Shown here one piece after another: positions 126 to 10,585 of a stretch of 10,585 nt of DNA (positions are counted from its first letter, which is position 1; each line of letters begins with the position of its first letter). Below the pieces are notes generated by a model, which ran no database searches, was not told where the DNA came from, and worked only from the letters and a program-made list of their open reading frames with translations. A program made the translations under genes and the position numbers. This DNA comes from a bacterium (GTDB lineage: Bacteria; Patescibacteria; Dojkabacteria; SC72), in assembly GCA_029553845.1 (NCBI GenBank), contig JAKPKF010000114.1, positions 1 to 10,585 on the forward strand. Direction: 5' to 3'.

Positions 126-145
126 ATTACTTTGTTGTTAATTTA
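121..145 (-). repeat. 25-bp leader block, copy 1
   Basis: First of four identical 25-bp blocks (others at 796-820, 1048-1072, 1400-1424). On the minus strand it starts TAAATTAACAACAAAG and ends at the start codon of the downstream gene. It also supplies the stop codon of the upstream small gene (143-145). Confidence 0.9.
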
Positions 146-1404: not shown

Positions 1405-1424
1405 ATTACTTTGTTGTTAATTTA
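1400..1424 (-). repeat. 25-bp leader block, copy 4
   Basis: Identical to 121-145. It also encodes the LTTK end of the protein at 1406-1744 and leads into the ATG at 1404. Confidence 0.9.
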
Positions 1425-1744: not shown

Positions 1745-1770
1745 CTTATATATAACTTAATTTAATTACT
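1742..1770 (-). repeat. 29-bp leader block, copy 2
   Basis: Identical to 576-604. It lies between the terminal hairpin of the structured RNA region and the ATG at 1744. Confidence 0.85.
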
Positions 1771-1784
1771 TAACAAACTGTATA

Positions 1785-2186
1785 GGACACTCTGGGTAAA
1801 CAAAACTCTAGGAAAGGAGGTAATGCTACCAGAGTATCCAACGCAATCTGTTAAAGAAGGAGGAGGGAATTGCACCCTCTACGGTGTAAATAGGTCTCGG
1901 TTATGATAACCTTGCATGACTTTCGTCGTATGCCACCCAGCTCTTATTTAGCGTTCCCTTATTAATTGGATACTCCTTCATGTTGGAGGGGTAGGGCTAT
2001 TCTCCCTAACACGGCAATCGTCTTTATGCCCACTTACACCTTCCCACGATTTAGATAAGGCATCGAACCTTAGGTCATTGCGTGTCTCTCTTCCACCACC
2101 CTCCTTGTTTTAAAGAACTAATACGAAACCTCCAGTATGTTTGTGACCTCCAGGAGTTCGTAGCAGTCCTCTAAACTGCTAGAAAG
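1785..2186 (-). ncRNA. Candidate large structured RNA (about 400 nt)
   Basis: This gap of over 400 bp between tightly packed genes has no usable ORF but many helices. Read on the minus strand they are: a 7-bp hairpin TAGCAGT/ACTGCTA right after the upstream stop; a closing pair AGGAGGG (2105-2099) with CCCTCCT (1867-1861); a T-arm-like hairpin TAAGG-TTCGATG-CCTTA (2072-2056); TAGGG/CCCTA (2008-1992); a long-range pair GGTGTAA (2040-2034) with TTACACC (1889-1883); GCAT-AC-GAC-GAAA-GTC-ATGC (1933-1914); and a terminal hairpin 1839-1785 with 11-13 pairs. The GNRA loop and a G-U pair in the terminal hairpin favour the minus strand, as do the neighbours; one GGAGGG/CCCTCT hairpin favours the other strand. 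GAGTATCC (1975-1968) can instead pair with GGATACTC (1839-1832), so folds may alternate. It is not recognisable as tRNA, tmRNA, RNase P or an intron. Phage-associated large RNAs such as GOLLD or ROOL are comparable in style only. Confidence 0.55.
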
Positions 2187-2769: not shown

Positions 2770-2820
2770 GTATATATGTACAGGGGTAGTTAGTATTGGT
2801 TGGCAGGTACTCTTTGGTAT

Positions 2821-2831
2821 GATAGTGGATT
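2821..2831 (-). promoter_or_regulatory. 11-mer motif, copy 1 (AATCCACTATC)
   Basis: Plus-strand GATAGTGGATT in the gap between the terminator of the upstream unit and the promoter at 2741-2769. It is one of seven copies or close variants, all in non-coding gaps. Identical copies lie at 4321, 4947 and 5521. Confidence 0.6.
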
Positions 2832-2861
2832 TTATAATTTAGGTTTTCCAAAATCGGGCAG

Positions 2862-2890
2862 AAAAAAAAGAAGAGGGAGGTTTCCCTCCC
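2862..2890 (-). terminator. Rho-independent terminator, minus strand
   Basis: On the minus strand: GGGAGG-GAAA-CCTCCC followed by TCTTC and a run of eight T (fwd 2862-2869). It ends the unit containing genes 2980-4278 and the small peptide at 2897, and insulates it from the promoter at 2741-2769. Confidence 0.85.
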
Positions 2891-2896
2891 CTGTTC

Positions 2897-2962
2897 TTAT
2901 TTTCGGATAGCTATGAGTACAGATATAATCAGAGCAGTTCCCATAAATTGTAAAATCATCAT
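2897..2962 (-). CDS. Possible 21-aa hydrophobic peptide
   Basis: A short open frame between the gene at 2980 and its terminator encodes MMILQFMGTALIISVLIAIR plus a final K. It is almost one transmembrane helix, followed by a positive end. The ATG is 17 nt after the upstream stop and the TAA lies just before the terminator hairpin. It would fit a small membrane peptide (toxin-like or holin-like), but its length makes chance possible and there is no ribosome binding site. Confidence 0.35.
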   Translation of the reverse strand: MMILQFMGTALIISVLIAIRK

Positions 2963-2979
2963 TGTACTATGTGTTAAGT

Positions 2980-3411
2980 TTAGATAGATAGTGCAAGTCT
3001 GTAAACTTCTGCTTGGTCGTCTGTTAAGTAGTCTTCATAGCTTATATCTTCCATTGCATTGTCGTGTGCCAGTTCTGATAGGTACTCGATAGCTATATTT
3101 GATAGTGGCATTTCGTGGTAGCATATGCGTTCATTGTTTGGTTCTTGTTCTTTTTTGATTATTTCATATATGTTGCTCCAGTCATTTGAGTTGTATGCCT
3201 TGTCTAGTAATATCCTAAACCTTTTTTCTGTTATGGTTTCTGTAGGCTGTTCTTGTGCCGTTATGGTGTCTTCCCATGCGTTTTGTATATCTACTAGAAG
3301 GCTGTAAAACTTGTTTGAATATGCCATTGCTGTAAATGGGTTTTTCTTCTCTTGCTCATACTCTGTAAGAGTTTGGCATATTCTGTCGTATATCTCCGTT
3401 TTGCTTTTCAT
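2980..3411 (-). CDS. Hypothetical protein, 143 aa
   Basis: Starts MKSKTEIYDRICQTLTEYEQ. It is mostly helical and rich in E, Y, N and D; residues 75-143 contain SNDWSNIYEIIKKEQ and an acidic segment MEDISYEDYLTDDQAEVYRL. No family recognised. ATG overlaps the stop of the upstream gene (TAATG), so it is probably translated by reinitiation. It is the last full-size gene before the terminator at 2862-2890. Probably soluble. Function unknown. Confidence 0.7.
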   Translation of the reverse strand: MKSKTEIYDRICQTLTEYEQEKKNPFTAMAYSNKFYSLLVDIQNAWEDTITAQEQPTETITEKRFRILLDKAYNSNDWSNIYEIIKKEQEPNNERICYHEMPLSNIAIEYLSELAHDNAMEDISYEDYLTDDQAEVYRLALSI

Positions 3412-3680
3412 TAAAGTATTGGTAATAAATTATTTTCGATTAGTTCTTTTGCTAACTCGTCGCCTTCTGCTCCAGAAAATTCCCGAGTATCTCCAGTCAT
3501 CTCATTGGTAAAGATTATTGAGTATATATATCCGTCGTCGGTGTAAAATACTTCTACTGTACATACTCTGTCGCCGTCTTTGTTGTCGTATTGTAACTCT
3601 TGTATGTATTGTCTATTCTCGCATAGGTACTTTTTGTTTTTGTCCATTGCGTCTATTACATAGTTCTTTGTTATGTTCAT
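3411..3680 (-). CDS. Hypothetical protein, 89 aa
   Basis: Begins MNITKNYVIDAMDKNKKYLC at ATG 3680-3678. A longer frame to 3740 exists but would overlap the upstream gene by about 45 nt. The shorter start lies 13 nt after the upstream TAA and is preferred. The middle (VCTVEVFYTDDGYIYSIIF) looks like a small beta sheet, and the end (GDELAKELIENNLLPIL) is helical. The short gap before ATG contains a variant of the 11-mer motif (3684-3694). Its TAA overlaps the next ATG. No family recognised. Confidence 0.7.
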   Translation of the reverse strand: MNITKNYVIDAMDKNKKYLCENRQYIQELQYDNKDGDRVCTVEVFYTDDGYIYSIIFTNEMTGDTREFSGAEGDELAKELIENNLLPIL

Positions 3681-3683
3681 TAT

Positions 3684-3694
3684 GATAGTTGATT
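3684..3694 (-). promoter_or_regulatory. 11-mer motif variant (AATCAACTATC)
   Basis: GATAGTTGATT on the plus strand, in the 13-nt gap just before the ATG at 3680. It differs from the main form at one base. Confidence 0.45.
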
Positions 3695-4278
3695 TAAAAA
3701 TTAGGTTGTCTGCCGTCTGCATAAAATTCATACTCGGCATTGATTATTTCTTCCTTTATACATTCATCACTTGTTAGATATTCGTACTCGTCCTCTAACT
3801 TCTTGTATAGTTGCCTTGCTTCCTCCCTGAAAGTTTCCTCTATCTCGTCCATGAGTTTGTATAGTTGGTCGCTTTGTTTCTCTGTACCCTCTAAAAAGAA
3901 GTGGTCGTCAAAATACATAGTGTTTTCGTGGCTGTAGTTTCCTTGTTGTCTTATATCTACAAACGGCTCGTATTCTTCTAAGTACTTGTATAGGCTTCTA
4001 TACTTGCTTTTTTGTTTTGTCTTTTCTATGTAGTCTTTTATAGATATACTCCCTGTAAAACTTGCCCCGTCGCCCTGACTCCAAAATCCTGAAAAGTATA
4101 TATCATCTACAGTACAACTGTATTCTTGATACATACGGTCTTTGAAGTCTTCGTATATAAAGGTATACCAGTCGTACATTAGAAAGCTATCGTCCTTTTG
4201 CATATTCTCTATAACTTTCTGCTTGGCTTCTTCTGAAAGTTCCTCGTATTGATAGAGTTTGATTTTTGCTTCTCTCAT
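3694..4278 (-). CDS. Conserved-looking phage protein with GFWSQGDGASF motif, 194 aa
   Basis: Starts MREAKIKLYQYEELSEEAKQ. The N-terminal helix (LYQYEELSEEAKQKVIENM, 8-26) and the central GFWSQGDGASFTG (64-76) are, from memory, seen together in uncharacterised proteins of many phages. A second conserved-looking part is around FVDIRQQGNYSHENTMYFDD (106-125), and the C-terminus is a long charged helix ending YEFYADGRQPNF. Function is not known to me. Some database names mention antitoxin systems but I cannot support that here. The start is supported by TAAATT 15 nt upstream. It is the first gene of a unit of three or four genes ending at 2862, and a 66-bp repeat lies directly upstream. Confidence 0.8.
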   Translation of the reverse strand: MREAKIKLYQYEELSEEAKQKVIENMQKDDSFLMYDWYTFIYEDFKDRMYQEYSCTVDDIYFSGFWSQGDGASFTGSISIKDYIEKTKQKSKYRSLYKYLEEYEPFVDIRQQGNYSHENTMYFDDHFFLEGTEKQSDQLYKLMDEIEETFREEARQLYKKLEDEYEYLTSDECIKEEIINAEYEFYADGRQPNF

Positions 4279-4288
4279 TGTGAATAAA

Positions 4289-4354
4289 ATAAGAATTTAT
4301 ATATTTTGAGGTTTCCTTTTGATAGTGGATTGCCTCCAGTTTCTATATTTATTA
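4289..4354 (-). repeat. 66-bp intergenic repeat, copy 1
   Basis: Matches 4915-4980 at 65 of 66 positions. It covers the whole gap between two genes, from the stop codon of the upstream gene (4352-4354) to 11 nt before the next ATG. It contains the 11-mer (4321-4331) and, 17 nt further on the minus strand, TATATAAATTCTTA. It may act as a promoter plus leader unit; GAGG/CCTC around the 11-mer could form a small stem. Confidence 0.85.
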
Positions 4355-4579
4355 CCTTTCGGGCTTCTCGCCTTGGTCTATGTACTTCTTTTTTAAGTCC
4401 CATGAGCTAACAAATTTTAATGAGCAAGATTGTTCGTATAGGTCTGTTAGTGCTTCCATTGGGTATATTACATAGTTATTGTTTAGTGCTTCCCACACTT
4501 CCTGTTCTTTGTGTATTATGTAAATTTTGTGGCATTCATCGTATGCGATAGCTTTTCCTTTTATGTCTTTGAGTTTCAT
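4352..4579 (-). CDS. Hypothetical protein, 75 aa
   Basis: Starts MKLKDIKGKAIAYDECHKIY and ends KKYIDQGEKPER. It has a mixed beta/alpha pattern with repeated hydrophobic strands (KIYIIHKEQEVWEAL) and three cysteines not arranged as a metal motif. It follows the upstream gene by 4 nt, so the two are likely co-transcribed. The stop lies in the 66-bp repeat. No family recognised. Confidence 0.65.
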   Translation of the reverse strand: MKLKDIKGKAIAYDECHKIYIIHKEQEVWEALNNNYVIYPMEALTDLYEQSCSLKFVSSWDLKKKYIDQGEKPER

Positions 4580-4583
4580 TGTA

Positions 4584-4904
4584 TTAAAGTATATTGAATT
4601 TAATATTATGACTTTCTACAAAATAGTTTCTAGCTTGTAGAATATTATCCTTTTGTATTTCTAAAATCCTTTTTGCTTCCTGTAGTGCTTCTTTTCTAGT
4701 GCTATAGCTCTGCGTTGTTATTGCTAACCCTGAGAGATAATCGTCTATGTGCCAATAGTCGTTACTTCCTGCTTCTGTTTTTCTAAGTCCTACGGTTATG
4801 CTTAAGCCGTTTGAAAGGTATAATCTCTCTGTATATCCTTCCACTTCTTTCTGCTTGGCTTCCTTGTCGCCTACTATGTTTATATTGTATTTTCTTTTTT
4901 GCAT
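4584..4904 (-). CDS. Hypothetical protein, 106 aa
   Basis: Starts MQKRKYNINIVGDKEAKQKE. The core (about residues 28-82) reads as strands followed by a helix: LSITVGLRKTE, YWHIDDYLSGLAI, then STRKEALQEAKRILEI. A tryptophan plus D(D/L)xSGL strand followed by TRKEAL helix is a pattern I associate with small uncharacterised phage proteins. No catalytic residues are evident. The start is supported by TAAATT 15 nt upstream and by the adjacent 66-bp repeat copy. It heads a two-gene unit with the 75-aa gene. Confidence 0.7.
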   Translation of the reverse strand: MQKRKYNINIVGDKEAKQKEVEGYTERLYLSNGLSITVGLRKTEAGSNDYWHIDDYLSGLAITTQSYSTRKEALQEAKRILEIQKDNILQARNYFVESHNIKFNIL

Positions 4905-4914
4905 TGAATTGTGT

Positions 4915-4980
4915 ATAAGAATTTATATATTTTGAGGTTTCCTTTGGATAGTGGATTGCCTCCAGTTTCTATATTTATTA
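4915..4980 (-). repeat. 66-bp intergenic repeat, copy 2
   Basis: Second copy of the 4289-4354 repeat, with a single difference (G at 4946 where copy 1 has T). It again begins at a stop codon (4978-4980) and ends 11 nt before an ATG. It contains the 11-mer at 4947-4957. Confidence 0.85.
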
Positions 4981-5481
4981 AAAATTAGGTTTGATATTTG
5001 GGTAGTAGTGTTTGATTGTTTCTTTCACATAATGCGATAGTGGCTTGTATTCTGTATAGTTGTTGGTTAGTTTTTCTATTTCTTCGTGTCTTTTAAGCCT
5101 TTTATCTTCTATTATTTCCCTTTGTTGTTTATCTAGTAGGTTATATCCTAGAGCATAATCGCAGTCTTCCTCAAAAAATACCATTTCCTTGTTTCCATCA
5201 TTACTGTAAAAGCTACAACTAGCCTCTTTATACTCCTTTGTGTTTGTGATAGTTCCCCTGTCGGCATATATAATAAATCCTCCGTGTCCTTCACAATCTA
5301 TATCAAAGACTGCAATTTGCTTTTCTAAGTCATAGAATTGAAACCGTATGCTGTTTATATTTCCCCAATAATCTTTTGGCTTTAATTGTTTTGCTTTGTT
5401 CTCTAAGTATTCCCCTAGAAACTGCCCTCCTGTTCCTATTACTTCTACATATTCATTTGTGAGAAATCTTGTTGTTTCCAT
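4978..5481 (-). CDS. Hypothetical phage protein with GHGG and EEDCDYA motifs, 167 aa
   Basis: Starts METTRFLTNEYVEVIGTGGQ. Residues about 54-112 contain FDIDCEGHGGFIIYADR and then MVFFEEDCDYALGYNLL. The combination of an HGG strand with a later (Y/F)EEDCxxA segment resembles a domain I recall in uncharacterised phage and plasmid proteins (possibly DUF7007), but I cannot confirm this. The C-terminal third is a charged helix. TAAATT lies 14 nt before ATG, and an 11-mer copy (5521-5531) plus an upstream terminator make it the first gene of its unit. Function unknown. Confidence 0.75.
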   Translation of the reverse strand: METTRFLTNEYVEVIGTGGQFLGEYLENKAKQLKPKDYWGNINSIRFQFYDLEKQIAVFDIDCEGHGGFIIYADRGTITNTKEYKEASCSFYSNDGNKEMVFFEEDCDYALGYNLLDKQQREIIEDKRLKRHEEIEKLTNNYTEYKPLSHYVKETIKHYYPNIKPNF

Positions 5482-5520
5482 TTTATTATTTACTTAATTT
5501 ATATATGCAAGTATTCTTTT

Positions 5521-5531
5521 GATAGTGGATT
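5521..5531 (-). promoter_or_regulatory. 11-mer motif with flanking inverted repeat
   Basis: AATCCACTATC on the minus strand, 15 nt before TATATAAATT. It sits between GCAAGT (5543-5538) and ACTTGC (5512-5507), a 6-bp inverted repeat that could place the motif in a hairpin loop. It lies between the terminator at 5557 and the ATG at 5481. Confidence 0.5.
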
Positions 5532-5556
5532 TTATTGACTTGCTTTTTCTAAAATC

Positions 5557-5583
5557 GGGGGAAAAGAAAAAATCTTCTCCCCC
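5557..5583 (-). terminator. Rho-independent terminator, minus strand
   Basis: On the minus strand: an 11-bp stem GGGGGAGAAGA/TCTTTTCCCCC with a T5 loop, followed by GATTTTAG. A G-U pair forms only on the minus strand. It ends the 5592-6054 unit 8 nt after the last stop codon. Confidence 0.8.
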
Positions 5584-5591
5584 TTGTGTTT

Positions 5592-5888
5592 CTATTCCTT
5601 GTACTTTCCAAATTTGGCGAAATAAGTGATGTCTTCCTCATTGTCCCATCTGAAGCCCTTGTAATCGCTTTTAACAACTTTTCCATATATCGCAGTCGAT
5701 GGGAAGTATTCAAAACCCATCTCCTTCAAGTCTGCCTCTGCATATTGATAGCCCGTACCATATAGCCCTTTTGTCCTAAATGTTCCGATATTATTCCCTC
5801 TAATAACAATCCAAGTAAAAAATTCATCACTACAGCCATATACTCCAGAGCTGTATCCTGTCTTTATATATGTATATAATTTTTTCAT
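5592..5888 (-). CDS. Hypothetical phage protein rich in Tyr and Gly, 98 aa
   Basis: Starts MKKLYTYIKTGYSSGVYGCS. Conserved-looking pieces are TGYSSGVYGCSDEFFTWIV (10-28), GLYGTGYQYAEADLKEMGF (41-59) and KGFRWDNEED (77-86). This style is found in small uncharacterised phage proteins; I cannot name a family. A mixed beta/alpha fold is likely and there is no membrane segment. The ATG lies 19 nt after the stop of the 48-aa gene, so the two probably form one unit from the promoter at 6113-6140 to the terminator at 5557. No Shine-Dalgarno sequence. Confidence 0.75.
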   Translation of the reverse strand: MKKLYTYIKTGYSSGVYGCSDEFFTWIVIRGNNIGTFRTKGLYGTGYQYAEADLKEMGFEYFPSTAIYGKVVKSDYKGFRWDNEEDITYFAKFGKYKE

Positions 5889-5907
5889 TGTTTTATATAT
5901 TAAAAAA

Positions 5908-6054
5908 TTAATTGTTTACTATTTGATATCCATTTTCTATTAGCATAATCATTAACTCTAATGAGTCCATAGAGCCTAGCCCTTTGATTGTGGCTTTCTC
6001 CCCGTCCTCGTATGCTTTTATGATATGATTACCCTTCTTGTATAGTGTAAACAT
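5908..6054 (-). CDS. Hypothetical protein, 48 aa
   Basis: Starts MFTLYKKGNHIIKAYEDGEK and ends MLIENGYQIVNN. The pattern is two short strands followed by a helix (SMDSLELMIMLIENGY), a compact small domain. It is the first gene of the unit starting at the promoter 6113-6140, with a leader of about 50 nt containing TAAATT 15 nt before ATG. The promoter, shared leader motif and close spacing to the next gene support it despite its size. Function unknown. Confidence 0.6.
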   Translation of the reverse strand: MFTLYKKGNHIIKAYEDGEKATIKGLGSMDSLELMIMLIENGYQIVNN

Positions 6055-6112
6055 ATTGATATATATAAGAATTTATTTATAGATTGATACTTTTGTATCT
6101 TTCTATGATTAC

Positions 6113-6140
6113 ATTATACATCTTTCACGACCTATGTCAA
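6113..6140 (-). promoter_or_regulatory. Strong sigma70-type promoter, minus strand
   Basis: On the minus strand: TTGACA (6140-6135), 16-nt spacer, TATAAT (6118-6113). Both boxes match consensus. It points at the 48-aa and 98-aa genes and is the outermost promoter found for the left arm. Confidence 0.85.
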
Positions 6141-6231
6141 TACCCTATTTATATATATTTACTATAACATATTAATATATAGGAAGGCTTGTAGTCTTTG
6201 GGTTGTTGTTTGTTTGTGGTTGGTTTGTGCA

Positions 6232-6260
6232 AAATCGCCAAGAAAAAGGGACTCCCCTTG
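6232..6260 (-). terminator. Probable terminator, minus strand
   Basis: On the minus strand: AAGGG-GAGT-CCCTT running into TTTCTTGGCGATTTT. It is a weaker stem than the other two, but it is followed by the same CGATTTT context. It implies a minus-strand transcript starting between about 6260 and 6850, for which no clear gene is visible. Confidence 0.5.
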
Positions 6261-6307
6261 TTTGTGTTTTATTATGAGGAGAATGTAGCGAAAGGGTCTT
6301 AATATAT

Positions 6308-6318
6308 GATAGTTGATT
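6308..6318 (-). promoter_or_regulatory. 11-mer motif variant
   Basis: GATAGTTGATT on the plus strand, the same variant as at 3684-3694, in the gene-poor region. Confidence 0.4.
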
Positions 6319-6423: not shown

Positions 6424-6628
6424 ATCCTTTTTACTCCTTTTACCGTTCCCGTGTGGGCTTCTTAATATACATCTTTCTAAAATCCTTTATACATCTACAT
6501 TTTAATATATACAATAACATGTCGGAGGTATTCTTGAACAGTCGGGCTAAGATAAGAATGAATGAAATGAATACATAATAGTATGGTAAAGTATGTATCG
6601 GATTAAGTATGAGAATAACGGAGGATTA

Positions 6629-6751
6629 ATGAAAAATATTTATAAATATATTATTACATGGGCGTTCCCGTCGTGTTATGTATTACCGTTAGGGGTAGGG
6701 TATCCACCGTATGGGTATGGTTTATATATATATAGTACCCTGTATAAATAA
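6629..6751 (+). CDS. Possible 40-aa Tyr/Gly-rich peptide
   Basis: The frame starts at ATG with GGAGG 5 nt upstream, one of the best ribosome binding sites in the window. It encodes MKNIYKYIITWAFPSCYVLP and continues as GVGYPPYGYGLYIYSTLYK. It has a short hydrophobic N-terminal segment and a Tyr/Gly/Pro-rich end. The stop is 153 bp before the RHH start. It may be a small secreted or membrane peptide, or a regulatory leader. Low-complexity AT-rich DNA around it makes a chance ORF possible. Confidence 0.35.
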   Translation: MKNIYKYIITWAFPSCYVLPLGVGYPPYGYGLYIYSTLYK

Positions 6752-6837
6752 TTCTTCCTCTCTCTTTAAGACTTATTATAATTTACAGTAGTAAAACATA
6801 GTGGGGGTATAGGTTTTTATAAAAGGTATGTTAGGTA

Positions 6838-6866
6838 TTGTATTTTATATTTTATTATGTTATACA
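6838..6866 (+). promoter_or_regulatory. Possible promoter of the right arm
   Basis: TTGTAT (6838-6843), 17-bp spacer, TATACA (6861-6866). It matches 3 and 4 of 6 consensus bases, so it is weak, but the spacing is ideal and the -10 overlaps the tandem repeat. A second candidate -10, TATAAT at 6777-6782, lacks a good -35. Confidence 0.35.
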
Positions 6867-6898
6867 TAAGTACATACATACATAAGTACATAAGTAAG
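6863..6898. repeat. Four tandem 8-bp repeats, candidate operator
   Basis: TACATAAG at 6863, 6879 and 6887, with TACATACA at 6871, all in register, followed by a half unit TAAG. The array ends 6 bp before the start codon of an RHH regulator. RHH proteins often bind short tandem repeats next to their own gene, so autoregulation is likely. This is inferred. Confidence 0.6.
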
Positions 6899-6904
6899 AT
6901 TATA

Positions 6905-7129
6905 ATGAGATTAAATATAACGATAAGTATAGAGAGTGAGGTGTTGGAGGAATTTGACTCTAGTAGGGGTGAGTTGAGTAGGGGTGATTACATAGCGGAG
7001 TTGTTAAAATGTTCAGAACCATTCAAATCCTCCACCCCAGATAAGAATGTAGTAGAGAGTAGGGAGGTGCCAGAGGATGATAATTGGATAGGTCCTCAGT
7101 TTAAGGATTCTAAGTTAAATAAAAAGTAG
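6905..7129 (+). CDS. Ribbon-helix-helix DNA-binding protein, 74 aa
   Basis: I take the start at 6905, giving MRLNITISIESEVLEEFDSS. An upstream in-frame ATG at 6857 would translate the tandem repeats into a tail unlike the family. Residues 1-35 fit the CopG/Arc-type fold: a beta strand RLNITISI, helix 1 SEVLEEFDSS, a turn with GELSRGD, and helix 2 YIAELLK. Such proteins dimerise and place the paired strands in the DNA major groove. The C-terminal half (36-74) is polar and probably flexible. It heads the right arm and sits next to four tandem 8-bp repeats, so it probably controls this arm or its own promoter. Its exact role (repressor, partition or antitoxin) cannot be decided; no ParA or toxin gene is adjacent. 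Confidence 0.75.
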   Translation: MRLNITISIESEVLEEFDSSRGELSRGDYIAELLKCSEPFKSSTPDKNVVESREVPEDDNWIGPQFKDSKLNKK

Positions 7130-7132
7130 GGT

Positions 7133-7318
7133 ATGAAGGATACATTGTCAGAATTGAAAGAGGTTAAAGTTTACCATGCGGCAACTGACGTAATACTGAA
7201 TTATCATAATAGTGGGGAGAACGCTGCCTTGGAGGCGTTAAAGAGGTTAGAAGAAGTTATAAGGACACCTAAGGAAGAAATTTTGGACAAGGAGGAAGAA
7301 GATGAAGAACAAGAATAG
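7133..7318 (+). CDS. Small acidic protein, 61 aa
   Basis: Starts MKDTLSELKEVKVYHAATDV. It is probably all helical (residues 1-48) with a very acidic tail (DKEEEDEEQE). It starts 3 nt after the RHH stop and overlaps the next gene by 17 nt, so it belongs to the same operon. No family recognised. An acidic partner next to the strongly basic 72-aa protein might suggest interaction, which is speculative. Confidence 0.65.
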   Translation: MKDTLSELKEVKVYHAATDVILNYHNSGENAALEALKRLEEVIRTPKEEILDKEEEDEEQE

Positions 7319-7520
7319 GAAGAGAAAAAGGAATAAGAAGGACAGAGGAAAGCCAAAGGGTTACGCTTGGAGGTATGAGAAGTGGTTTGATGTGAATGAC
7401 GAGTTGGATTATAAGGACAGAAATTTGTTACCTAGGGAGGGTAGTTGGGGTCAGATAATGAGTCCTATTACTGGAATAAAGTACAGGGTAAAGATAGCGA
7501 AGATAAAGAGAGTTCGTTAA
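7302..7520 (+). CDS. Small basic protein, 72 aa
   Basis: Starts MKNKNRKRKRNKKDRGKPKG. The first 20 residues are nearly all basic, suggesting nucleic acid binding. The remainder (YAWRYEKWFDVNDELDYKDR to the basic end KIAKIKRVR) may form a small beta domain. The start has AAGGAGG 6 nt upstream, inside the end of the previous gene. The stop comes 2 nt before the closing helix of the structured RNA at 7523, so this gene and that RNA may share a transcript. Function unknown; binding of the adjacent RNA is possible. Confidence 0.65.
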   Translation: MKNKNRKRKRNKKDRGKPKGYAWRYEKWFDVNDELDYKDRNLLPREGSWGQIMSPITGIKYRVKIAKIKRVR

Positions 7521-7522
7521 CA

Positions 7523-7826
7523 ACAGAGTCGGGGGTGGTCGAACAAGCCGCTATGCACGGCTAAGACACACGGATTTACTGAAAGCTAGAAATAGTGAGT
7601 AGGACTCAGAGAGGCAATCGCTGTATGATGGTTTCGTGGTTGTGGGTCTAAACAAGCAATATACTGATAATATATAGTAGCTATGTAATTAGTGCAGAAG
7701 ACCCAAAGCTTGGTAAGTAACTTCATTTCTTTGCTGGACGAGAGGTAGGACAATCTGGGGAAACCTGGTGAGTCCGAGACTGGGAAAGCGGTAGGTGGAC
7801 GGGCTTACCCCTCCGACTTTGTTTTT
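7523..7826 (+). ncRNA. Candidate structured RNA, about 300 nt
   Basis: A gene-free stretch whose ends pair in a 13-bp helix: 7523-7535 (ACAGAGTCGGGG and one more G) with 7810-7822. Two G-U pairs (G26-U19 and G33-U12, last digits) exist only on the plus strand, which fixes the strand. Inside are AGCCG-N7-CGGCT (7546-7562) with outer GTC/GAC; a hairpin CTA-GAAA-TAG (GNRA loop, 7586-7595) extended by 7575-7580 with 7598-7603; a 7-bp pair TGGGTCT (7643-7649) with AGACCCA (7699-7705); and several GGAC/GTCC options at 7736-7800. AAGCC (7545-7549) could also pair with GGCTT (7802-7806), a possible switch. GTTTTT follows the closing helix like a terminator tail. I do not recognise it as tRNA, tmRNA, RNase P, SRP RNA, group I/II intron or a named riboswitch. 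Confidence 0.65.
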
Positions 7827-7828
7827 AA

Positions 7829-7858
7829 TGGGCAATAGTGTATATTGGGGTATATAAT
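7829..7858 (+). promoter_or_regulatory. Possible promoter after the structured RNA
   Basis: TGGGCA (7829-7834), 18-bp spacer, TATAAT (7853-7858). The perfect -10 lies 16 nt before the ATG at 7875. It could restart transcription of the resolvase and packaging genes after the RNA. Confidence 0.35.
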
Positions 7859-7874
7859 TTTAGAACACAAAATT

Positions 7875-8024
7875 ATGAAGATAGTAAAAGAGAAGGGCAA
7901 GTGGTTACTTTATAGTGATGATGACAAGAAGGTTATCGGGAGGTTTGGTAGAAAGGATATAGCGGAAGCATACAGGAGTGAACTAAAAAAGGAAGACAAG
8001 AAGTCTTCAAAGAAAGAAAAGTAG
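7875..8024 (+). CDS. Small lysine-rich protein, 49 aa
   Basis: Encodes MKIVKEKGKWLLYSDDDKKV, then IGRFGRKDIAEAYRSELKK and a lysine-rich tail. The first 37 residues read as strand-turn-strand-helix (KWLLYSDDDKKVIGRFGRKDIAEAYR), a compact pattern like small phage proteins with a trailing amphipathic helix. It has no Shine-Dalgarno sequence. A candidate promoter lies just upstream and RusA starts 33 nt downstream. No family named. Confidence 0.6.
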   Translation: MKIVKEKGKWLLYSDDDKKVIGRFGRKDIAEAYRSELKKEDKKSSKKEK

Positions 8025-8057
8025 AGATACTAATACTTACATAACAAAAGGAGTACT

Positions 8058-8420
8058 ATGGTTTTTTATACTAAACCTGTCCCAAAACCAAGGATGACAC
8101 GCTCAGACAAATGGAAGAAGAGAGATTGTGTAGTTAATTACTACGAGTTCAAGGACGCAATACAACTTCAAGCAAAGTTAGAAAATTTTGAATTACCCGA
8201 TTCGTTTCGGGTTGTTTTTGCTATACCGTTTCCACGAAGTTACGGTAAGGGTAAAAGAGAGAAGATGCTGGGGCAGCCTCATCAGATTAAACCTGACATA
8301 GACAATTACATAAAGGCTTTAATGGACTGTTTGAAGGACAGTGATGCTGACGTTTGGCACGTGGATGCTCAGAAGATATGGACAAACGGAGACGGATTTA
8401 TTTCAGTAGAAGAGCTATGA
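8058..8420 (+). CDS. rusA: RusA-type Holliday junction resolvase, 120 aa
   Basis: RusA enzymes are dimeric, Mg-dependent endonucleases that cut four-way DNA junctions. In phages they help remove branches from replicated DNA before packaging. Visible hallmarks are PVPKPRMTR at 7-15, a strand RVVFAIPFPRS (51-61), a basic loop YGKGKREKML and the signature KPDIDNYIKALMD (78-90). D80, D82 and K86 match catalytic positions. D103 in HVDAQKIW matches the third acid; the usual DD pair is VD here, keeping the second D. The length equals that of Escherichia coli RusA. AAAGGAG lies 5 nt before ATG, a good site in a window where they are scarce. The stop overlaps the next start (ATGA). Confidence 0.9.
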   Translation: MVFYTKPVPKPRMTRSDKWKKRDCVVNYYEFKDAIQLQAKLENFELPDSFRVVFAIPFPRSYGKGKREKMLGQPHQIKPDIDNYIKALMDCLKDSDADVWHVDAQKIWTNGDGFISVEEL

Positions 8421-8755
8421 AAATAAAGTGGGCAGATTTTAGAGACAATCCAATGAAGTATTTGGAGGGGGTTAAGGAGGTTAAGGTAGAAAGAGGGGAC
8501 GGTAGTTATTTTAGGGTAAGACACTATAGCCCGTACGCAGAAGACGGTGGTCACAAGATAAAAGGTCCTAGGAAGTATCCTAATGCTAAGGTGAAGAAGG
8601 ACCATAGGTGTAACATATGTGGTAAAACGGAAAGGGTGCTTTGGGTAGTACCATTTGACGCAAGTTATTCGCCAGGTTGGTATTGTTACAAGTGTAGGAG
8701 GGCTAGGGATATAATGGATATTAAGAGGGCGAAGAAGTATAATAAAATTGTATAG
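8417..8755 (+). CDS. Zinc-ribbon-like protein, 112 aa
   Basis: I choose ATG 8417, which overlaps the RusA stop as ATGA; the frame remains open upstream only inside RusA. It starts MKIKWADFRDNPMKYLEGVK. C65-x2-C68 (RCNICGKT) and C90-x2-C93 (WYCYKCRR) make a two-knuckle zinc site, flanked by basic residues (RRARDIMDIKRAKKYNK). A DNA-binding role near replication or packaging is likely. I cannot name a family. It overlaps the longer possible start of the HNH gene. Confidence 0.75.
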   Translation: MKIKWADFRDNPMKYLEGVKEVKVERGDGSYFRVRHYSPYAEDGGHKIKGPRKYPNAKVKKDHRCNICGKTERVLWVVPFDASYSPGWYCYKCRRARDIMDIKRAKKYNKIV

Positions 8756-8780
8756 AAACCAAGGGGCGAAGCGATTGAGT

Positions 8781-9065
8781 ATGGGAAGATTTTTTAAATT
8801 AAAATATTTTAAAACCGATGATATTAATGTTCACGCTTACGATAACAACCATTATGGGAATTGCGTACTTTGTGGCAATTTTTGCTTGCTTCATAGCCAT
8901 CATGTCGTTACTAGAAGCAAAGGGGGCAAAGGAGAAGATACTGTGGGTGTTTGCCCTGCTTGTCATAATTGGGTTCATGCTCATCCTAAGCTGGCAGCTG
9001 CACGAGGTCTTTATTTAAGCGAATATAAGAATGAAAAAAGAATTACTAGAATTACTCCCTACTGA
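8781..9065 (+). CDS. HNH endonuclease, 94 aa
   Basis: Metal-dependent DNA nuclease of the HNH type. The sequence shows C28-x2-C31 (NCVLCG), then HSHHVVTRSKGG (38-49, with catalytic His near 40-41), C58-x2-C61 (VCPAC) and HNWVHAHP (62-69) giving the final N and H. HNH genes beside terminase are known in cos-type phages, where they assist terminase cutting during packaging; that role fits here. The ATG at 8781 is chosen. In-frame TTG starts at 8748 and 8775 are possible, the first overlapping the previous gene. The 3' end overlaps the small terminase by 35 nt. A second frame inside it (8818-9018) encodes a two-segment membrane-like protein. Confidence 0.85.
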   Translation: MGRFFKLKYFKTDDINVHAYDNNHYGNCVLCGNFCLLHSHHVVTRSKGGKGEDTVGVCPACHNWVHAHPKLAAARGLYLSEYKNEKRITRITPY

Positions 9066-9540
9066 ACAAGAACTCTTAAAGCTGAGTGCCAAGGTTAAGA
9101 CAGTCATTACAAGTCGAGACGAGTTGCTTAGACAAATAGGTTCTCTTAAGTTAGAGGAAGTAGGGTTAGAGGAAAAGATGGTCTATGTACTAGGTCTGAT
9201 TAGTTTAGGTTTTGACCCTGTACGTGCTAGAAAAAGATTAGAGGTACCTTACAGTCATTTCTATATTTGGCAACAAGACCCAAGGCACCAGGCGATGTTA
9301 GAGAGTGCAGAGGCTAGAGGTGAATTGGTGTTAGAGGAAAAGGTGTTGGCTGGAGCAGAGAAAGACCCAGAGCTAGCGCTTAGAGTGCTTAAAGAAAAGC
9401 AGAGGGTTAGAGAGAAGAAGGAAGACGTGGAGATAGAAAAGACTAAGACTGTATGGGAGATAATGCAAAAGAGTGGTAAGGAAAGGGGTATAGAAAATGA
9501 GCCAGTAGATGGACAATTAATTGACGATGTACTCAAATAA
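9031..9540 (+). CDS. terS: Terminase small subunit, 169 aa
   Basis: The small terminase binds the packaging start site on phage DNA and directs the large subunit there. Residues 50-90 (MVYVLGLISLGFDPVRARKR and onwards) form a helix-turn-helix with the typical pattern of a GF/AxxxxxARKRLxVPxxxFxxWxxDPxHxxML element. The N-terminal 45 residues are helical, and residues 91-135 form a charged helical oligomerisation region. The tail binds the partner. Length fits the family. It overlaps the end of the HNH gene, and its TAA overlaps the large subunit ATG (TAATG). Identification rests on the motif plus position. Confidence 0.85.
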   Translation: MKKELLELLPTEQELLKLSAKVKTVITSRDELLRQIGSLKLEEVGLEEKMVYVLGLISLGFDPVRARKRLEVPYSHFYIWQQDPRHQAMLESAEARGELVLEEKVLAGAEKDPELALRVLKEKQRVREKKEDVEIEKTKTVWEIMQKSGKERGIENEPVDGQLIDDVLK

Positions 9541-10585
9541 TGAAAAACAAGATACTCAAGGACGAGAGATTAGAAAAACTGGCAAGGGAAGACCCTAGAC
9601 AGATAATAGAAAAAATGTTCTGGATTGTTGATAAGGCGGGTAGAAGAGTCCCATTTAAATTCAATGTCCCTCAGGCTAAGTATTACGAGGAATATATGTC
9701 ACCAAGGGACGATATATTAAAGGCAAGGAAGGAGGGTTTTTCTTCGGCGATTTTGGCTATACTGACCTGTAAGTTTCTATTCGTACCAAACAGTGTGTGT
9801 GCATGCGTAAGCCATAGGGATGAGGACACTAAGAGGTTGCTTGAAAAGGTGTATTACTACATAGAGAATTTACCTTTTGAGGTAACCTTAGAAAAAGCTA
9901 GTGCAAGTAGGTTAAGGATTAAGGAAATGAATACAGACTTCATTATAGGAACGGCTGGTTCTAAGACGTTTGGTAGAGGTGATACGATTCATTATTTACA
10001 CTTATCAGAGTTTGCACACTACGGCAACTGGGATATGGTTACTGGTTTGCTTAACGCTGTTCCTGACGATTTAGACAATACCTGGGTGGTCAAAGAAACT
10101 ACTGCAAACGGATACGGGACTCCGCACCATATAGCATGGCAGGACGAGAAAAGGGGGGCTAGTGTATTCAAGCCAATCTTTTTTTCCTGGGCAGACAACC
10201 CTGAATATCAAATGCCTATACAACCAGACACAAAATTCACTGCAGAGGAAAGAAGTTTACAGGATTCGCTTGGTCTAACAGACGAGCAATTGCTATGGAG
10301 ACAATGGAAGATTAATTCCATGCAACCTACACAAGATTATACCAGGGAGGATTTATTCAAACAGGAATATCCTGCAACGGATACGGAAGCATTTTTGTCT
10401 ACAGGAAGACCTGTTTTTGACCCAGAGACACTAGAATGGTATGACCAAGCTATATGTACAGAGCCAATTAAAAGGGGTGAACTCATAGGCTGGAATCCTC
10501 CGTATATACACGAAACTAACCTAGGAGAACTTAGAATTTATAAAGAGTCGGAGCAAGGACACCAGTACGTGATTGGTGGGGACAC
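9540..10585 (+). CDS. terL: Terminase large subunit, N-terminal 348 residues (cut by window end)
   Basis: Packaging motor ATPase with a C-terminal nuclease. Starts MKNKILKDERLEKLAREDPR. RVPFKFNVPQAKYYEEY (36-52) is the adenine-binding region. KARKEGFSS (61-69) is the Walker A variant of the KARQxGxST type. IHYLHLSEFAHYG (150-162) is Walker B with catalytic E157. ETTANG (186-191) is the coupling motif, and YPATDTEAFLSTG (277-289) is typical for the link to the nuclease. The frame ends at YVIGGD (343-348), where D348 should be the first metal ligand of the RNase H-like nuclease. About 100-200 residues lie beyond the window. Start by TAATG overlap with the small subunit, without a ribosome binding site. 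Confidence 0.95.
   Translation, partial: MKNKILKDERLEKLAREDPRQIIEKMFWIVDKAGRRVPFKFNVPQAKYYEEYMSPRDDILKARKEGFSSAILAILTCKFLFVPNSVCACVSHRDEDTKRLLEKVYYYIENLPFEVTLEKASASRLRIKEMNTDFIIGTAGSKTFGRGDTIHYLHLSEFAHYGNWDMVTGLLNAVPDDLDNTWVVKETTANGYGTPHHIAWQDEKRGASVFKPIFFSWADNPEYQMPIQPDTKFTAEERSLQDSLGLTDEQLLWRQWKINSMQPTQDYTREDLFKQEYPATDTEAFLSTGRPVFDPETLEWYDQAICTEPIKRGELIGWNPPYIHETNLGELRIYKESEQGHQYVIGGD

What the first reader, a model, noticed from the sequence alone, without database searches (positions are those of the whole stretch)
7523..7826. Unassigned 300-nt RNA closed by a 13-bp helix between phage genes
The sequence shows a closed domain with two strand-specific G-U pairs, a GAAA-capped hairpin, a 7-bp long-range pair and a possible alternative pairing AAGCC/GGCTT. 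It has a T-rich tail and lies in an otherwise compact operon. It matches no RNA class I can recall. It could be a packaging RNA, a regulatory element or a new class of phage RNA.
Basis: seen in the sequence. Interest (0 to 1): 0.8.

Follow-up and report, generated by a model that had tools for sequence, protein, structure and literature searches.

The report
Orphan folded RNA in phage operon
Between two small genes of an unnamed phage lies a roughly 310-base stretch with no convincing protein code whose two ends pair, as RNA and on one strand only, far better than chance; it matches no known RNA family, but no relatives could be found, so it is a candidate for a new phage RNA and not yet a proven one.

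Summary
The helix is real and longer than reported; the rest of the fold is less certain. The 13-bp helix is part of a 23-pair one: 7512-7520/7825-7833 (9 bp), a C.U mismatch, 7522-7535/7810-7823 (14 bp), 5 pairs G.U. It contains the upstream stop codon and most of the 'T-rich tail'. Over 7500-7840 the + strand folds at z -3.8 to -3.9 (0 of 1500 shuffles as good; 0 of 600); - strand z -0.41, DNA -0.25. But the interior without the closing helix, 7536-7809, is at only z -1.1 (77 of 600): the excess lies mainly in the helix. No Rfam family reaches its threshold.

Covariation could not be tested: no homologous RNA was found in what I could search of IMG/VR, GTDB contigs, INPHARED and PLSDB. Close relatives were seen only as proteins. 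AAGCC/GGCTT costs 4.5 kcal/mol and leaves the closing helix intact, so it is no simple terminator switch.

Best reading: an RNA domain bracketed by a long helix that sets its ends by processing or termination. A cis-acting intercistronic element is equally likely. Packaging RNA has no support.

The parts
7512..7833 (+). whole candidate RNA domain, including the extended closing helix
   Evidence: z -3.9 over 7512-7833 (1 of 600 shuffles as good); interior alone z -1.1
7522..7535 (+). 5' arm of the inner closing helix (14 bp with 7810-7823, 2 G.U)
   Evidence: mean pair probability 0.94; duplex -21.8 kcal/mol
7810..7823 (+). 3' arm of the inner closing helix
7512..7520 (+). 5' arm of the outer closing helix (9 bp with 7825-7833, 3 G.U); contains stop codon TAA 7518-7520 of the upstream ORF
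   Evidence: p 0.99; for the ORF
7825..7833 (+). 3' arm of the outer closing helix
7546..7562 (+). predicted hairpin AGCCG/CGGCU with 7-nt loop CUAUGCA
   Evidence: p 0.94
7592..7624 (+). predicted stem-loop, 7 bp AUAGUGA/UCGCUGU
   Evidence: p 0.86
7643..7705 (+). predicted arm closed by 7-bp helix UGGGUCU/AGACCCA, with AU-rich inner hairpin
   Evidence: p 0.97
7712..7809 (+). predicted 3' arm: GGUAAGU/GCUUACC, then UUCAUUU/AGGUGGA, UUGCU/AGCGG and GGAC/GUCC
   Evidence: p 0.87-0.96; modelled as R1 (7709-7812)
7755..7768 (+). GAAA-capped hairpin CUGGG-GAAA-CCUGG
   Evidence: p 0.92
7818..7826 (+). U-rich run UUUGUUUUU after the G+C-rich closing stem; mostly paired in the extended helix; possible terminator or processing tract
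   Evidence: the short-loop terminator scan does not list it
7302..7520 (+). upstream ORF, 72 aa, basic, no family found
7875..8024 (+). downstream ORF, 49 aa from ATG (59 aa from TTG 7845), no family found
   Evidence: for the ORF; long form; short form

Best explanation
An RNA domain of about 300 nt is made as part of the rightward transcript that also carries RusA, HNH and terminase genes. Folding brings together the two arms of a 23-pair closing helix. The RNA's ends are then set at that helix, either by double-strand-specific cleavage (RNase III-like) or by termination at the G+C-rich stem followed by UUUGUUUUU. What remains is a bracketed domain protected from exonucleases that acts as a separate RNA, most likely in an RNP or by binding host or phage factors during infection. 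Shown: sequence, strand-specific closing helix well beyond shuffles, absence of a credible ORF, fit to the gene gap. Inferred: transcription, end formation, stability, the interior arms, action in trans, any partner.
For: Fold energy and closing helix of 7500-7840 beyond all 1500 shuffles. Signal on the strand of the operon and only with RNA energies. Five G.U pairs in the extended helix, which on the other strand would be A.C mismatches. No + strand ORF of 50 aa or more inside the gap; the longest ORF there is a 55-aa antisense TTG ORF that finds no candidate protein. GC 0.45 in 7501-7800 against 0.37 for the contig, second highest of the 300-nt windows. The helix begins on the stop codon of one gene and ends before the next. 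No Rfam family at threshold.
Against: No homologue and so no covariation. No transcript data. The interior without the closing helix folds no better than many shuffles (z -1.1, 77 of 600), so the multi-armed fold is a single-sequence prediction. Coding sequence at 3193-3496 (-) reaches z -3.5. No promoter of its own above chance: 8 promoter-like sites in 6500-9600, 8.0 expected. Helices of equal pairing weight over 150-500 nt occur in 19 of 35 other loci. A ribosome at the stop codon would melt the 5' arm, which fits a cis-acting element as well as a free RNA.
Confidence: 0.36

Rival explanations
1. Cis-acting intercistronic element: the closed domain stays in the polycistronic mRNA and controls or insulates the downstream RusA-terminase genes (partial termination at the closing stem plus U-run, 3'-end protection of the upstream messages, or coupling to translation of the upstream ORF, whose stop codon is in the helix).
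For: Stop codon TAA 7518-7520 is inside the 5' arm. G+C-rich stem followed by UUUGUUUUU. It lies between genes of one direction. Most of the folding signal is in the closing helix, not the interior. The 5' arm carries TTAACAACAGAGT, one base different from TTAACAACAAAGT found four times in the leftward cluster.
Against: The proposed alternative pairing leaves the closing helix intact and costs 4.5 kcal/mol. The loop of such a terminator would be about 270 nt, and the terminator scan, which allows loops of 3-8, does not list it. No ligand-binding family matches.
Confidence: 0.36
2. Chance or compositional structure: a G+C-richer non-coding filler whose ends happen to pair.
For: One contig only; chosen after the fact by a reader. 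Interior at z -1.1 and the energy signal depends on the limits. Comparable z in coding sequence. Long helices elsewhere: 19 of 35 loci have one of equal weight, and 1 of 4720 sliding windows has 23 or more closing pairs (that grid holds no window covering the whole helix of the finding).
Against: 0 of 1500 shuffles reach the energy or the 23-pair helix. Strand and RNA specificity is not explained by composition. The helix brackets the gene gap.
Confidence: 0.2
3. DNA-level element: inverted-repeat mobile element (MITE-like), replication origin or packaging site whose palindrome acts as DNA.
For: A 24-position imperfect inverted repeat bounds a non-coding block upstream of the terminase gene; its ends resemble a motif repeated in the genome.
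Against: 5 of 6 non-Watson-Crick positions are G.U on the + strand (a G.U-permissive search favours this). DNA fold z -0.25, - strand RNA z -0.41. No other match in the window above shuffles. No inverted repeat reported in 7400-7950 with seed 7 and minimum length 10. No target duplication seen by eye.
Confidence: 0.05
4. Packaging RNA analogous to phi29 pRNA.
For: About 2 kb upstream of a terminase large subunit gene.
Against: No Rfam match. Some of the closest terminase relatives carry PF17289. pRNA is about 174 nt and tied to phi29-type ATPases (recalled).
Confidence: 0.03

Closest known systems
GOLLD and ROOL RNAs (phage/prophage ornate RNAs)
   Same: Phage-encoded, non-coding RNA of unknown function; GOLLD rises during lysis and both often lie near tRNA islands (passages of PMC12286853).
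   Different: 659 nt (a ROOL) to over 800 nt (many GOLLDs; same passages) against about 322 nt here; their fold is backed by covariation, this one is not; no Rfam match; no canonical tRNA gene in the window, only a tRNA-like oddity 5.5 kb away.
phi29 prohead RNA (pRNA)
   Same: Phage RNA near packaging genes.
   Different: Size (recalled) and no Rfam match; no evidence for a capsid role.
Large intercistronic or leader structures of phage operons (attenuators, processing stems)
   Same: Folded block between co-directional genes, G+C-rich stem then U-run.
   Different: The closing helix spans about 320 nt, far more than a usual terminator hairpin.
SpF44 sRNA (RF02437)
   Same: Only Rfam model listed for 7450-7900 at E up to 10 (17.1 bits, E 1.8).
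   Different: Far below its gathering score of 70 and covers only 7545-7625; a chance match.

Membership tests
Any Rfam 15 family (including RNase P, tmRNA, SRP, 6S, group I/II introns, ROOL, GOLLD, OLE, pRNA, HEARO) | covariance-model match at or above the gathering score | tested here: not met
   0 matches in the whole window; only SpF44 at 17.1 bits (gathering 70) in 7450-7900 with E up to 10. The named families are recalled as present in Rfam, not checked one by one
GOLLD/ROOL-like phage ornate RNA | length of about 600 nt or more and family-specific conserved helices | tested here: not met
   domain about 322 nt; no Rfam match
New structured-RNA family (general criterion) | statistically supported covariation across homologues | tested here: inconclusive
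   no homologue of the RNA found
New structured-RNA family (general criterion) | fold beyond dinucleotide-shuffled controls, specific to one strand | tested here: met
   met for 7512-7833 and 7500-7840; not met for the interior 7536-7809 taken alone (z -1.1)
tRNA / tmRNA | acceptor and T-arm geometry | tested here: not met
   none in the window by the default run; in the intron-permissive runs none was seen in the finding, but each printout was cut at 6000 characters
Intrinsic terminator | short-loop G+C-rich hairpin followed by T-run | tested here: not met
   one search lists no terminator-like site on the + strand within 7500-7850; only the long-range stem precedes the T-run
Type III toxin-antitoxin RNA / retron ncRNA / omega RNA | repeat array, adjacent toxin, reverse transcriptase or RNA-guided nuclease gene | tested here: not met
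   one direct-repeat family of two 70%-alike copies in 7400-7950, no array; no such gene among 20 of the 44 ORFs, run against PHROGs and Pfam, 8 of them also against PADLOC; the window is only part of the phage
Packaging RNA | presence in proheads / requirement for packaging | not testable with these tools
   needs biochemistry

The most novel reading that the evidence does not exclude
The phage lineage carries a previously undescribed family of compact RNAs of about 300 nt, encoded ahead of the packaging genes, closed and excised at a 23-pair helix that overlaps the stop codon of the preceding gene, and acting as a free RNA or RNP during infection. A second orphan, tRNA-like RNA in the leftward cluster would make it a phage with at least two unclassified RNAs.
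Probability: 0.25. Interest if true: 0.75.

Novelty: new variant of a known kind. Interest (0 to 1): 0.4.

Why it matters
If real, this is a compact phage RNA with no Rfam counterpart, small enough for direct structure work, in a phage clade represented in the protein database by terminases 69-92% identical on contigs of up to 46 kb. Its position ahead of the packaging genes makes clear predictions: a discrete RNA, ends at the closing helix, an effect on packaging-gene expression or on the host. It would also be an example of a non-coding gap in an uncultured phage that strand-specific folding flags before homologues are known.

Tried and rejected
Homologue searches, all negative for the RNA: terminase single sequence in IMG/VR (no pattern match) and alignment A1 (31 rows: window plus 30 of the 120 listed of 656 proteins) in IMG/VR (34 loci, 26-48% identity) and GTDB contigs (123 pattern matches, 0 confirmed); Zn-finger alignment A2 (window plus 13 of 13 proteins) in IMG/VR (1 locus, a 13-residue match); blastn against INPHARED and PLSDB (no match); tblastn against INPHARED of the Zn-finger and 9031-9540 proteins (no match) and of the terminase (270 records, best row 29.8% identity, DNA not examined); exact patterns from the RNA (in IMG/VR and 48 in GTDB contigs: 0; in IMG/VR: 110 and 12 loci). 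These 122 loci and the earlier 35 were compared by blastn and nhmmer (157 loci): blastn rows were cut at 40, best E 0.03 (L147, 18 nt, not looked at further), nhmmer none. The two longer matches, L155 and L098, lie inside coding ORFs. Model R1 of the 3' arm was run on window plus 35 loci (itself, and L024 at E 6.2), on 15 whole viral records (0 of 15) and on 92 of the 122 pattern loci (0; L116-L145 not given).

Structure in relatives: 68 gap strands from 18 loci folded. Three gaps were followed up: L003 1990-2320 (z -2.3) contains a 54-aa ORF, L014 5300-5570 (z -1.9) holds a tRNA-like gene, L007 852-1123 is at chance. The lowest z, L004 9953-10160 (-3.6; the same-sized gap of L003 gave -2.6), lies downstream of the terminase and was not examined further.

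Similarity of this RNA to the other non-coding gap (about 1750-2190, - strand): both hold TACCCCTCC, but 108 of 200 shuffles reach the score, so a paralogue claim was rejected.

Terminator-switch idea (AAGCC/GGCTT): rejected by forced folding. Group I/II intron, RNase P, retron and omega RNA: considered from memory, no Rfam match and no partner gene found. The last protein search went to the 55-aa antisense ORF: no candidate.

The control used the window plus 10 of the 15 nearest loci; L004, L010, L011, L013 and L015 were dropped as near-duplicates, judged, not tested.

I also corrected a wrong statement that the window 5321-5624 is coding: it spans two genes' ends and the gap between them.

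Papers: passages of PMC12286853 and PMC2864571 were seen; all other titles in listings only.

Full report
What the window is. The right half carries rightward phage genes: a RusA-like resolvase (8058-8420), a protein with two conserved CxxC pairs, zinc-ribbon-like by recall (8417-8755), an HNH endonuclease (8748-9065), an ORF in the usual place of a small terminase (9031-9540, by position only, no family) and a terminase large subunit (9540-, cut by the window end). The eleven best protein relatives of the terminase are 77-92% identical but were seen only as database proteins. The nearest DNA that I could fetch is 26-48% identical at that protein. The left half is a leftward cluster of small genes; of ten tested, one has PHROG matches (unknown function) and none a Pfam match at cut-off. 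No whole genome is held.

The observation. The gap between the ORF 7302-7520 and the ORF starting at 7845 (TTG) or 7875 (ATG) has no + strand ORF of 50 aa or more; the longest ORF in it is an antisense 55-aa TTG ORF, for which the protein search had no candidate. Given its flanks, the closing helix grows to 23 pairs: 7512-7520/7825-7833, a C.U mismatch, 7522-7535/7810-7823, with 18 Watson-Crick and 5 G.U pairs, mean probabilities 0.94-0.99. The stop codon of the upstream ORF and most of the U-run are inside it.

Chance. On 7500-7840 the fold is at z -3.8. Of 1500 dinucleotide shuffles, 0 reach the energy, 0 reach a 23-pair closing helix (largest 18), 1 has 14 or more contiguous closing pairs and 55 have 10 or more. 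The opposite strand is at z -0.41 (33 of 100 shuffles as good). The same strand folded as DNA is at -0.25 (37 of 100). The two 300-nt windows with the highest GC are 1801-2100 (0.460) and 7501-7800 (0.453); both fall largely on stretches without a credible gene.

Results against. The signal depends on the limits and sits in the helix (600 shuffles each): 7525-7828 z -2.3 (12 as good), 7523-7826 z -2.8 (5), 7512-7833 z -3.9 (1), 7500-7840 z -3.9 (0), 7450-7900 z -2.7 (8), and the interior 7536-7809 only z -1.1 (77). The wide limits were chosen after the helix was seen. In a 304-nt grid (272 strands, 40 shuffles each) the window 7525-7828 is not among the 25 best listed; 3193-3496 (-), which is coding, has z -3.5, and 5321-5624 (-), which spans two genes' ends and their gap, has -3.9 or -3.2. 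Helices with a pairing weight of 33 or more over 150-500 nt occur in 19 of 35 other loci, some of them much richer in GC. Among 4720 sliding 341-nt windows, 1 has 23 or more closing pairs and 6 have 14 contiguous, one of these six being this helix; that grid holds no window covering the whole 23-pair helix. I rate a real RNA element as likely (about 0.7), with the helix better supported than the interior.

Anatomy. Inside the closing helix the prediction has a hairpin AGCCG/CGGCU with a 7-nt loop, a 7-bp stem-loop at 7592-7624, an arm closed by the all-Watson-Crick UGGGUCU/AGACCCA, and a long 3' arm closed by GGUAAGU/GCUUACC that ends in the GAAA-capped hairpin. The AAGCC (7545) / GGCUU (7802) alternative costs 4.5 kcal/mol of 108.5 and keeps the closing helix, so it rearranges the interior rather than releasing the ends.

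Relatives. No homologous RNA was found by DNA similarity, by exact patterns in IMG/VR or GTDB contigs, or by a covariance model of the 3' arm (104 positions, one sequence) in 36 sources, 15 whole viral records and 92 further loci. A single-sequence model is weak and these relatives are distant, so the absence says little.

Mechanism. The operon's direction and the folding strand agree. The helix starts on a stop codon and ends before the next gene. It is long enough for double-strand-specific cleavage, and its G+C-rich part is followed by UUUGUUUUU. I infer that a discrete RNA is set free at this helix by processing or termination (0.36). A cis-acting intercistronic element that controls or insulates the packaging genes is equally likely (0.36): the signal is in the bracket rather than the interior, and the stop codon in the 5' arm means that translation of the upstream ORF would hold the helix open. 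The promoter scan gives no support for a promoter of its own: 8 sites in 6500-9600, 8.0 expected.

Known families. Rfam gives nothing at gathering thresholds in the whole window and only a sub-threshold SpF44 match with permissive settings in 7450-7900. GOLLD and ROOL are the nearest in kind: phage-borne, ornate, function unknown, often near tRNA islands, 659 to over 800 nt (passages of PMC12286853). This candidate is about half their size and not matched by their models. A phi29-type packaging RNA is not supported. Type III antitoxin, retron and omega RNAs are not supported either: no repeat array and no partner gene among the 20 ORFs tested.

Novelty. If homologues confirm the fold it would be a new RNA family of a known kind, phage structured non-coding RNA. 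On present evidence it is a single-sequence candidate with one strong feature, the closing helix.

Noticed in passing
window 1855-1979, - strand (gap 1745-2186): A tRNA-like element: perfect 7-bp acceptor stem GAAGGAG/CTCCTTC, T-arm GAGGG-TGCAATT-CCCTC directly before it, TA at positions 8-9, short D-arm, but an oversized region where the anticodon arm should be. ARAGORN lists it only with introns allowed and a lowered threshold (Leu(caa), 31-nt intron), among other calls that look spurious; the default run and Rfam's tRNA model do not. Fold z -2.2, 4 of 200 shuffles as good.
   Followed up: partly
window 1749-2052, - strand: This stretch has the lowest fold z of 272 grid strands (-4.0; -3.8, 1 of 600 shuffles as good) and overlaps the highest GC of the contig (0.46), so the phage may carry a second unclassified RNA.
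   Followed up: partly
window 129-141, 804-816, 1056-1068, 1408-1420 (-) and 7517-7529 (+): The 13-mer TTAACAACAAAGT occurs four times in the leftward cluster, three of them at gene junctions; the 5' end of the finding has it with one base changed, and its 3' arm carries it inverted with one mismatch (pattern written after seeing both; 7 matches with up to 2 mismatches, 1.18 expected). It may be a gene-junction or translation-start motif.
   Followed up: partly
window 2818-6318: A motif TTTGATAGTGGATT recurs (8 matches with up to 2 mismatches, 0.21 expected), in two places within a 66-nt unit 98% alike (4289 and 4915); perhaps a promoter or regulator site of the leftward genes.
   Followed up: no
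L009 1895-2102, L010 and L011 5405-5612, L014 5398-5476: In 4 of 10 loci scanned ARAGORN finds tRNA genes just upstream of the terminase genes, each with an anticodon loop of unusual length (tRNA-???), plus tRNA-Gly(tcc) in three. L009, L010 and L011 look like near-duplicates, so this is perhaps two independent cases.
   Followed up: partly
window 7951-8232, + strand: Another long-range helix (18 pairs, 13 contiguous) spans the next small ORF and the start of the RusA gene; probably chance, but it lies directly downstream of the finding.
   Followed up: no
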